The position numbers were made by a program, and so were the translations under genes. Shown in pieces: positions 26,932-45,531 of a stretch of DNA of 64,000 nt; positions within the stretch are counted from its first letter, which is position 1, and the number at the start of each line of letters is the position of its first letter. A model generated the notes under the pieces. The model saw nothing but the letters and a program-made list of their open reading frames with translations. It had not been told where the DNA came from and made no database searches. This stretch comes from Sulfurihydrogenibium subterraneum DSM 15120 (lineage in GTDB: Bacteria > Aquificota > Aquificia > Aquificales > Hydrogenothermaceae), in assembly GCF_000619805.1 (NCBI RefSeq), contig NZ_JHUV01000011.1:124001-188000 (forward strand). Reading direction: 5' to 3'.

Positions 26932-26955
26932 GAAATTTTTAGATTGGTTGTAGAG

Positions 26956-27303
26956 TGGAGGCGGGGGGAATCGAACCCCCGTCCGACAAGAGCCCAAGCA
27001 GTAGGGCATCTACATGCTTAGCCTGTGTTTAGATTTCGCTTCTCTCTTTCCCACAGGCAGGAGGAGAGAAGCTATCCCCGTAGAGTTTCGGAGGTTGTCT
27101 CAGGGGAGGTTGGCAACCTCCTATCCTGTATATCTTACGCCCTATCCCAGCCTACAGGCAAGCCAGGTAGGACGTCGCTGCGTTAATTAAGCAGCGAGAG
27201 CGATTTCGCGTTCGGGAATTGTTTTGTTTTGGTTTTTTACGTAGTGACCTTCTACGGCATGCTTCCCTTTGCCTGCTCTTGCCGTCGAACCCGTATCGCC
27301 CCC
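26956..27303 (-). ncRNA. ssrA: transfer-messenger RNA
   Basis: 348-nt tmRNA that rescues stalled ribosomes with SmpB. The acceptor stem pairs GGGGGCG (5', 27303-27297) with CGCCTCC (3', 26963-26957), discriminator A at 26956; CCA is not encoded. The T-arm GTTCGATTCC and the D-like GGTTCGACGG are present. The reading frame ends GCT CTC GCT GCT TAA (stop 27189-27187). By alignment with the Aquifex tag I read IPEREIALAA (27219-27190); the resume codon is inferred. The 3' half has pseudoknot-like GC-rich pairs. Confidence 0.95.
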
Positions 27304-36738: not shown

Positions 36739-36891
36739 TTAAGAAAAAGACCTCCAAAATGAAGATTATTAGTAATAATTATATATCAGAATTAGGCTTG
36801 TGGTATTGAAACTAATCACAAATTTTATAGAAAATAATAGAAAATAATCCTTGAAACTTCTATATAAAAAGCTTAAAATAATACTATACTG

Positions 36892-36954
36892 ATGAAACTA
36901 TCTAATTATACAAATAAATACGGAATTACAAAGGAATTAGGAAATGCCAATTAG
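36892..36954 (+). pseudogene. remnant of an IS607-type tnpA
   Basis: A 20-codon frame begins MKLSNYTNKYGIT and stops at 36954, overlapping the tnpB start by 11 nt. IS607 serine-recombinase TnpA proteins begin with a very similar MKLS-x-Y-A-K-K-x-G-(V/I)-(S/T) segment (from memory). The recombinase body is absent, so an internal deletion seems to have joined the head to the tnpB junction. The match is short, so confidence is limited. Confidence 0.4.
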
Positions 36955-38413
36955 GGCATACAAGCACAAGCATAATGCAAATAAAAATAAGGTAGAAACA
37001 GTCAGACGAATTCTCAAAGACTATAGAAAAACTGCTGAAAAAATATCAAAATTACAATGGTATTTGTTTTTTAAAGAAGGCAGTTTCAATAAAAACTACA
37101 AGATTAACCACATTCCATCAAAACTATCAGAAAGATACAAACAAACTTGCCAGTATCAAGTAGTATCAGTATTAAACAGTTATACATCTAACAGACAAAA
37201 AGATTTTATAAAAACAGTTTATAGAAGTTCTTTAGACGAAGATACCAAATTTATCTTATTTGTGATAAATAAATCAAAAGCATGGTTTAATGAAAAATTA
37301 ACAACAGCAGTTCTTAAAGATGATAAAGGGAAAGTTATAAAAGAACTACCGATAGAAAAACATCACTACAAACTCTCAAGAAAAATAATAAAACAAACAT
37401 TTAAGAAAAACAGATTTCCTTCTTTCAAACATATATCAATGCAGTTAGACCAGAAAGTAGCAAAGGTAGAAAAAAGGAAAGAAGATAAAGCAAAAGAATT
37501 TGACTGGTGGATAAAACTATCAACACTTGAGAAAGGAAAACCAATATACCTACCAGTATATAAAAACAGTTATTTTGAAGGAAAAGAAGGAATACATTTA
37601 AACTTTGTGCAGATAAACGAAAAAGAAGGAAATATAGAAATAGCATTTTTAAAGGAAGTGCCAAAAGAGACAAGTTATCTGCCTAAAACAAACAAAATAA
37701 GCATAGACATAGGATTAAAAGCGTTATTTGCAGTAAACACAGGAGATTTGTATGGAAAGCAGTTTTACAAACAGTTAAAATATTACGATAAAATAATCAC
37801 AAAACTACAGGCAGACTTACAAAGACAAGGAATAAATCCGAAAGGAACCAAAAGATACAAAGAGCTAAACAGAAAACTAAAAGAATACATAAAAAACGAA
37901 ATAAATAGACTTTTAAACAGAATATTTAAAACATACCAGCCAAAAGAAATAGTAATAGAGGATATAAACTTTCAAAACAGCGATTTATCACCGCAGTTAA
38001 ACAGATTATTAAACAGATTTGGAATGAAGATAATAAAGCAAAAATTAGCAGATTTTGAAGAAAGATACGGGATAAAGATAATAAAGGTAAATCCAGCATA
38101 CACAAGTCAAACCTGCTCAAATTGTGGATATGTAGATAAAAGGAATAGGAAATCACAAGAAAAATTTGAATGCTTAATATGTGGTAAGAAAATAAACGCA
38201 GATGTAAATGCAAGCAGGAACATAGGGGTTAGAAGTTCTAATCCTATGAAGTCACAATCAAGAAGATCCGTCCTTAGAATGCTCGTAAGGGCATATCTGA
38301 GAGACGATAAACACTATGCCTGTAATAGTCGGGCTCGTGAGGTAATTTTGGGCAATAGATATTTTATATGTTTTCACGAACCGCTCAAAATTACTTCCAA
38401 AGAGAAATCATAG
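36944..38413 (+). CDS. tnpB: TnpB RNA-guided nuclease (IS element)
   Basis: 489-aa transposon-encoded protein of the family ancestral to Cas12. RuvC acidic residues are Asp255 (ISIDIGLKA), Glu339 (IVIEDINF) and Asp420 (NADVNASRN). The zinc ribbon has Cys391/Cys394 (TCSNCGY) and Cys410/Cys413 (CLICGKK). All are kept, so cleavage activity is possible. About 70 residues follow the last aspartate. This tail is coded across the structured RNA region and may not be a folded domain. The N-terminus (MPIRAYKHK) is typical. Confidence 0.9.
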   Translation: MPIRAYKHKHNANKNKVETVRRILKDYRKTAEKISKLQWYLFFKEGSFNKNYKINHIPSKLSERYKQTCQYQVVSVLNSYTSNRQKDFIKTVYRSSLDEDTKFILFVINKSKAWFNEKLTTAVLKDDKGKVIKELPIEKHHYKLSRKIIKQTFKKNRFPSFKHISMQLDQKVAKVEKRKEDKAKEFDWWIKLSTLEKGKPIYLPVYKNSYFEGKEGIHLNFVQINEKEGNIEIAFLKEVPKETSYLPKTNKISIDIGLKALFAVNTGDLYGKQFYKQLKYYDKIITKLQADLQRQGINPKGTKRYKELNRKLKEYIKNEINRLLNRIFKTYQPKEIVIEDINFQNSDLSPQLNRLLNRFGMKIIKQKLADFEERYGIKIIKVNPAYTSQTCSNCGYVDKRNRKSQEKFECLICGKKINADVNASRNIGVRSSNPMKSQSRRSVLRMLVRAYLRDDKHYACNSRAREVILGNRYFICFHEPLKITSKEKS

Positions 38414-38442
38414 ATATTTTCTATGAATTTCTATGATATCTC
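38222..38442 (+). ncRNA. candidate omegaRNA (reRNA) at the tnpB 3' end
   Basis: Four structures follow one another. A hairpin spans 38222-38247 (ATAGG..TTAGAA pairing with TTCTAA..CCTAT). A second spans 38272-38290 (CCTTA/TAAGG). An H-type pseudoknot has stem 1 at 38335-38340/38374-38379 (TCGTGA/TCACGA) and stem 2 at 38341-38353/38383-38395 (13 bp with two G-U). A 12-of-13 bp hairpin pairs 38402-38414 with 38430-38442. TnpB guide RNAs of known systems overlap the gene end in the same way. The exact 3' border and guide are not determined. Confidence 0.6.
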
Positions 38443-38495
38443 AGACTATAATCCCTGTCAATGAATAATTTAAAGATTGATTTAAAAAGTAGATT

Positions 38496-45183: not shown

Positions 45184-45531
45184 GGCTACGGCTTTGGAGT
45201 AAGCCGGATTCTGTTTTAGTGGTCATTTGTCTAAGCTCCCTACCCGAAGGCATCGGTCGGGCAAACCTGATAACGCCTTCTTACTTGGGATTGCTCCGGA
45301 AGAGGGTTGCCAACCTACGATGTCACCACCGTAGGTAGTGGGCTCTTACCCCACTTTTTCACCCTTGCCTCCATGACCACACCAAAAGGTGTGCGGATTG
45401 GCGGTCTGTTTTCTGTGGCCCTATCTGTGAGGTTGCCCCCACCTGTCTTTCGACAGCTTCCTACCCTGTGGAGTCCGGACTTTCCTCACCAGCTATTTAC
45501 AGCTGGCGCTAACCACCTCAAAGCCGTAGCC
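45184..45531 (-). ncRNA. rnpB: RNase P RNA (bacterial type A)
   Basis: 348-nt catalytic RNA for tRNA 5' maturation. Conserved regions on the minus strand: GAGGAAAGTCCGGACTCC (CR-I) early, GGCAAGGGTGAAA and GGTAAGAGCCCACT centrally, and ACAGAATCCGGCTTAC (CR-V) near the 3' end. P1 is a perfect 13-bp helix joining 45519-45531 with 45184-45196, unusually long and fit for a thermophile. Presence of this RNA separates the organism from Aquificaceae. The 3' end lies 1 nt from the stop of the convergent ATPase gene. Confidence 0.96.

What the first reader, a model, noticed from the sequence alone, without database searches (positions are those of the whole stretch)
36892..38442. tnpB element with a readable pseudoknot in its 3' end (candidate omegaRNA)
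The tnpB 3' end holds two hairpins, an H-type pseudoknot (stem 1 6 bp, 38335-38340/38374-38379; stem 2 13 bp, 38341-38353/38383-38395) and a terminal hairpin. All TnpB catalytic and zinc residues are kept. The coding frame runs about 70 residues past the last RuvC aspartate through this RNA, so the tail sequence is probably constrained by RNA, not protein.
Basis: partly seen in the sequence, partly recalled or inferred. Interest (0 to 1): 0.68.

Follow-up and report, generated by a model that had tools for sequence, protein, structure and literature searches.

The report
IS607 transposon's tnpB-embedded guide RNA

Summary
The omegaRNA reading is right; the pseudoknot is not. The window holds an IS607-type element (about 36803-38449) with tnpB intact and tnpA almost wholly deleted. 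An empty site in a sister species (…GTAT|AATCCC…) fixes both borders. Relatives keep a small hairpin there instead. It is paired (at least 4 of 5 core pairs) in 34 copies, switches U-A/G-C on both sides twice on the tnpB tree, and fits three more distant relatives, one from Thermus. This is the pseudoknot known from ISDra2, ISFba1 and ISXfa1 guide RNAs. The tnpB tail is constrained as RNA and, more weakly, as protein. Expression, cleavage and TAM are untested. New member of a known kind. Side leads: solo RNA copies without tnpB, and a sister clade with Gln for the third RuvC Asp.

The parts
36803..38449 (+). IS607-type element, tnpA-deleted derivative (left end GTATTGAAAC, right end CAGACTAT)
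   Evidence: Homology to relatives with unrelated flanks starts or stops here (L006 supports the right border only); G004 empty site reads ...CTTATG-GTAT-AATCCC.... TAT is shared by left end, right end and target, so the crossover lies within 36804-36806 / 38447-38449.
36893..36952 (+). remnant of tnpA (MKLSNYTNKYGIT...KELGNAN*, about 20 codons left of about 195)
   Evidence: L034 and L007 carry the full 195-aa serine recombinase at this place, overlapping the tnpB start; no tnpA relative elsewhere in the window's genome, while positive-control genomes match.
36944..38413 (+). tnpB, 489 aa, RNA-guided endonuclease family, RuvC D255/E339/D420, zinc ribbon CxxC..CxxC
   Evidence: NCBIfam guided_TnpB 133.5 bits (cut-off 100) and Pfam PF07282/PF01385; alignment A4; AlphaFold2 model, best PDB fold matches Cas12f, ISFba1 TnpB and ISDra2 TnpB.
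38318..38334 (+). omegaRNA stem 1 (38318-38321/38331-38334) with apical loop 38322-38330; 5' boundary of the conserved RNA core
   Evidence: Invariant in the window clade; in clades A and B the same hairpin has other sequences with compensatory changes, AAGGG/CCCTT, AGGGG/CCCCT, AAGGC/GCCTT, GTGCC/GGCAC.
38325..38330 (+). pseudoknot 5' strand AUAGUC in the loop of stem 1
   Evidence: Pairs with 38444-38449; at least 4 of 5 core pairs in 34 of 34 copies (all 5 in 31), 167/170 cells against a shuffled mean of 150.6 and maximum of 161; pair 2 switches T-A/G-C on both sides at two tree changes.
   Evidence: 95.8% of cells paired, 4 pairs with changes on both sides.
   Evidence: 96.9% of cells paired, one two-sided change.
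38402..38442 (+). terminal hairpin (38402-38418/38426-38442), comparable to stem 4
   Evidence: Basal 11 bp nearly invariant.
38444..38449 (+). pseudoknot 3' strand GACUAU = last six bases of the element; also carries the TAT recombination core
38450..38469 (+). predicted native guide (AATCCCTGTCAATGAATAAT), host flank at the right border
   Evidence: Follows from the border and the known TnpB layout; not tested. Guide length of 16-20 nt taken from the literature (PMC10097598, PMC11061315).

Best explanation
It is an IS607-family TnpB-omegaRNA module left behind by partial loss of tnpA. The 3' end of the tnpB transcript is the guide-RNA scaffold: a 4-5 bp hairpin whose loop pairs with the last 5-6 bases of the element (pseudoknot), a long stem 2 and a terminal hairpin. 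The scaffold ends at the element border, so the next bases of host DNA are the guide. TnpB would bind this RNA and cut DNA that matches the right flank next to a TAM made by the target/core sequence ((G)TAT), that is, the empty site left when the element leaves, which favours its retention. Shown here: ORF and active-site residues, borders, empty site, conserved and covarying RNA, loss of tnpA. Inferred: transcription, processing, RNA binding, cleavage, TAM, retention function.
For: TnpB family and fold. Close relatives, three with full IS607 tnpA; an annotated IS607 transposase precedes a Thermus relative. Empty site in G004. Stem 2 covariation. Terminal pseudoknot in 34 copies across three tnpB clades, with a two-sided switch at two points of the tree, and in three further relatives: L107 ATAGT/ACTAT, L108 ATAGT/ACTAT, Thermus GGAGT/ACTCC. 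Left-end core GTAT/GTCT follows the same switch. Scaffold lengths of 94-166 nt against 116 nt in ISDra2 (PMC10097598). Silent-site rate lowered in the tail. Same pseudoknot placement, shown to be needed for activity, in ISXfa1 (PMC10711439), with analogous ones in ISDra2 (PMC10097598) and ISFba1 (PMC11061315).
Against: No expression data. The terminal pseudoknot is nearly invariant within the window's own clade, so covariation there comes only from comparison with other clades and rests on two tree events. Stem 1 of the window clade is only 4 bp, and an alternative conserved helix (38289-38295/38315-38321) competes with it. No Rfam family matches. TAM inferred from one empty site; bases upstream of the left ends are not conserved.
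Confidence: 0.9

Rival explanations
1. One reading: an omegaRNA organised by an H-type pseudoknot of stem 1 38335-38340/38374-38379 and stem 2.
For: Both helices are perfect or nearly so in the window copy.
Against: Stem 1 lacks any two-sided change, two of its pairs fail in 4 of 8 copies, 72.9% of cells paired; 12% chance rate; competes with invariant pairs 38339-38340/38396-38397 and with the conserved loop hairpin. In clades A and B the loop of stem 2 looks different and I saw no such partner (by inspection, not counted).
Confidence: 0.05
2. The tail is conserved as a protein domain and the RNA structure is incidental.
For: Coding frame has the lowest pN/pS of the three frames (0.42, 0.51, 0.67 by clade); AlphaFold2 gives a confident helix at 440-453.
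Against: pS is lower in the tail than in the core (0.29 v 0.52, 0.50 v 0.76, 0.50 v 0.68); covariation in stem 2; pLDDT falls to 62-69 and then 37 from residue 451 on, about where the RNA core begins (codon 459); units with the RNA but no tnpB exist (L045, L046).
Confidence: 0.04
3. The element is a relic: the omegaRNA and TnpB are intact by recent origin but no longer expressed or active.
For: tnpA lost; no second copy at this identity in the genome; many fragmentary relatives.
Against: tnpB ORF open with all active-site residues, RNA helices intact, and core pN/pS of 0.16 among the close relatives.
Confidence: 0.3

Closest known systems
ISXfa1 TnpB-reRNA, IS607 (PMC10711439)
   Same: IS607 element; pseudoknot between the five bases flanking the guide and an apical loop; the transposition core base is built into the scaffold; right flank as guide.
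   Different: Core and TAM there are GG/GGG; here the core is TAT (TCT in relatives). Here tnpA is deleted and the RNA overlaps the tnpB 3' end. No activity data here.
ISDra2 TnpB-omegaRNA, IS200/IS605 (PMC10097598)
   Same: Order of elements: stem 1 with pseudoknot loop, stem 2/3 hairpin, stem 4, pseudoknot 3' strand, guide; RNA overlaps a C-terminal tail that is disordered and dispensable there; similar length.
   Different: Different transposase family, TAM (TTGAT) and sequence; the tail here runs 69 residues beyond D420 and shows some protein constraint.
ISFba1 TnpB with RAGATH-18-derived RNA, IS607 (PMC11061315)
   Same: IS607 TnpB; pseudoknot formed with bases next to the guide; fold match (8iaz).
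   Different: Its RNA is separate from the coding sequence and contains RAGATH-18; no Rfam match here.

Membership tests
TnpB RNA-guided nuclease | RuvC D-E-D triad and CxxC..CxxC zinc ribbon, TnpB profile match | tested here: met
   NF040570 above its cut-off.
TnpB RNA-guided nuclease | RNA-guided DNA cleavage | not testable with these tools
   Needs biochemistry.
IS607 family element | serine-recombinase tnpA upstream of tnpB | tested here: met
   Full tnpA in close relatives L034, L007, L008; only a remnant in the window, so the window copy alone no longer has it. The IS607_TnpB NCBIfam model is matched only below its cut-off (48 of 350 bits).
IS607 family element | no target-site duplication, exchange over a short core shared by both ends and target | tested here: met
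   G004 empty site: GTAT in target, GTAT at left end, CTAT at right end.
TnpB omegaRNA/reRNA | scaffold ends at the right border, host flank is the guide | tested here: met
   Border fixed by the empty site and by other right-end insertion sites; the pseudoknot strand is the last six bases. The 3' end of a real transcript was not seen.
TnpB omegaRNA/reRNA | pseudoknot between the loop of a stem and bases flanking the guide | tested here: met
   (sequence evidence only).
TnpB omegaRNA/reRNA | expression of the RNA | not testable with these tools
   No RNA-seq available here.
RAGATH-18 reRNA | match to the RAGATH-18 motif | tested here: inconclusive
   No RAGATH match up to E = 10 in Rfam 15; whether Rfam holds that model was not checked.
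IS200/IS605 element | Y1 (HUH) transposase tnpA | tested here: not met
   Close relatives carry a serine recombinase instead.

The most novel reading that the evidence does not exclude
In these bacteria the module is being separated from transposition: tnpA is lost (window, L006), and roughly 250-nt solo copies of the guide RNA without tnpB (L045, L046) are kept as intact ncRNA genes that arm a resident TnpB in trans with new guides, for example to hold or regulate other loci.
Probability: 0.12. Interest if true: 0.6.

Novelty: new member of a known kind. Interest (0 to 1): 0.3.

Why it matters
It adds a thermophile IS607 TnpB clade (Aquificota, with relatives in Thermus and viral contigs) to the known guide-RNA systems. 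It gives natural covariation support, independent of bench mutants, for the rule that the bases next to the guide pair with the loop of stem 1, and for the coupling of that pseudoknot to the recombination core of IS607 elements: T-A-T/T-C-T switches at both ends and in the loop. It also shows how easily a readable but unconserved pseudoknot can be picked from one sequence.

Tried and rejected
Rfam at gathering score and E up to 10: no guide-RNA family. Genome-contig scan gave one relative, so most relatives came from the genome search. tnpA elsewhere in the genome to mobilise the element in trans: none, with positive controls. Targets of the solo RNAs' guides at other sites: only self at 0 mismatches; hits with 1-2 mismatches are few and of the order of the reversed-pattern control. 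Promoters upstream of the solo units: promoter-like sites present, but no more than in shuffles. TAM from upstream flanks: not conserved. A plain file of the genome was not available. I did not build a covariance model, since the helices could be counted directly.

Full report
WHAT IS THERE. The ORF 36944-38413 (489 aa) is a TnpB: NCBIfam guided_TnpB 133.5 bits (cut-off 100), Pfam OrfB_IS605 and Cas12f1-like_TNB. D255, E339 and D420 and the four zinc cysteines are present. An AlphaFold2 model from 18 relatives (mean pLDDT 85.5) matches Cas12f, ISFba1 TnpB and ISDra2 TnpB in the PDB. The window's genome has two paralogues at about 50% and 40% identity (L002, L003) and a distant fourth match; other genera of the same family carry copies at 78-80%.

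THE ELEMENT. Aligning the window with L034, L006, L007 and L008 shows homology ending sharply at the right at 38449 (unrelated flanks beyond); the window, L034, L007 and L008 share the left border at 36803, L006 does not. L034 and L007 hold a 195-aa serine recombinase before tnpB, overlapping its start, and L008 holds the same gene; in the window this gene is cut to MKLSNYTNKYGIT...KELGNAN, and L006 appears to have a different tnpA deletion. No tnpA relative exists elsewhere in the genome, while five of the six other genomes searched match. The sister species G004 keeps the empty site: its DNA runs ...CTTATG-GTAT-AATCCCTGTCAA..., where the window has ...CTTGTG-GTATTGAAAC [element] CAGACTAT-AATCCCTGTCAA. 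There is no target duplication, and TAT is common to left end, right end and target. This is IS607 behaviour (exchange over a short shared core; PMC6188088).

The quoted bases are correct. In eight copies (alignment A2) stem 2 is 95% paired with four pairs changed on both sides, and the structure beats every slid control. By inspection of the pairs and the frame, the covarying changes are mostly silent, and K/R where they are not. Stem 1 fails: 72.9% of cells, no two-sided change, two pairs broken in four of eight copies. A match of six Watson-Crick pairs between that loop and the 30 nt upstream arises in 12% of shuffles. Its bases 38339-38340 are used by an invariant extension of stem 2, and 38379 by a small hairpin (GGCU/AGCC) that relatives conserve.

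THE CONSERVED PSEUDOKNOT. The element's last six bases GACTAT (38444-38449) have one exact complement in 38262-38449, ATAGTC at 38325-38330, in the loop of a hairpin 38318-38321/38331-38334. The first hint was that clades A and B also end in a string complementary to a loop at the same place in the tnpB frame. Over 34 distinct copies 167 of 170 cells pair (shuffled mean 150.6, maximum 161). The second pair is T-A in the window clade and half of clade A, and G-C in the rest of clade A and in B; on a tnpB tree this needs two changes, and both sides change together each time. Two events cannot reach formal significance alone, and shuffles do not allow for relatedness. Three relatives not used to find the rule also fit: L107 and L108 (viral contigs, about 45% identity) and a Thermus plasmid element with an annotated IS607 transposase. 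Their hairpins were found by looking for the rule, among other chance matches in the scan, so they are a check, not a blind test. The left-end core, where found, is GTAT with ATAGT loops and GTCT with AGAGT/GGAGT loops; L066 has CTAT, and several copies have no recognisable left end.

WHAT IT WORKS LIKE. ISDra2 omegaRNA has stem 1 whose loop pairs with bases -6 to -2, then a stem 2/3 hairpin, stem 4 and the guide (PMC10097598). The window RNA has the same order. ISXfa1, an IS607 TnpB, needs a pseudoknot between the five bases flanking the guide and an apical loop; breaking it cut activity and restoring it partly rescued, and its scaffold includes the flanking core base (PMC10711439). The window fits this rule with another core. 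The likely cycle, inferred: tnpB mRNA is trimmed to this RNA; TnpB uses the right flank as guide and cuts the empty site next to (G)TAT, favouring retention of the element. With tnpA gone the copy cannot move itself.

THE TAIL. With frame-shifted controls, pN/pS in the tail is 0.42, 0.51 and 0.67 in the coding frame against 0.66-1.27 in the other frames, so some protein constraint remains. pS falls from 0.52, 0.76, 0.68 in the core to 0.29, 0.50, 0.50 in the tail, as expected if RNA also constrains silent sites. AlphaFold2 gives a confident helix to about residue 453; beyond that, where the RNA core begins (codon 459), confidence drops. In ISDra2 the C-terminal region is disordered and dispensable and the functional parts of protein and RNA hardly overlap (PMC10097598). 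The pattern here is similar.

LIMITS. RNA expression, 3' end, TAM and cleavage were not tested. Stem 1 is short in the window clade and has a conserved competitor (38289-38295/38315-38321). Whether the copy is still active is open.

Noticed in passing
L045:1017-1266, L046:1038-1287 (genome G026); partial copies in G031 (L047, L063, L065): Roughly 250-nt copies of the guide RNA without tnpB, 94% alike, in unrelated flanks, sharing a 5' part (AGGAGG...CCTCC around a hairpin) not found in the tnpB-linked copies. Possible trans-acting guide RNAs. The G031 copies are cut off at contig ends, so their tnpB status is unknown.
   Followed up: partly
L002, L009-L014, L019, L035, L066 and Thermus L187; column of window D420: A whole clade of these IS607 TnpBs, including a paralogue in the window's own genome, has Gln in place of the third RuvC Asp (NAQVN) while keeping the first two catalytic residues, the zinc ribbon, the RNA pseudoknot and, in L013 and Thermus, tnpA. 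It may be nuclease-impaired or use another residue.
   Followed up: partly
window 45184-45527 (-), 26953-27303 (-): RNase P RNA (class A) and tmRNA genes, ordinary.
   Followed up: no
L042, L043 (genome G037): Copies with a damaged tnpB tail and stem 1 (3 of 5 pairs) whose terminal pseudoknot still pairs.
   Followed up: no
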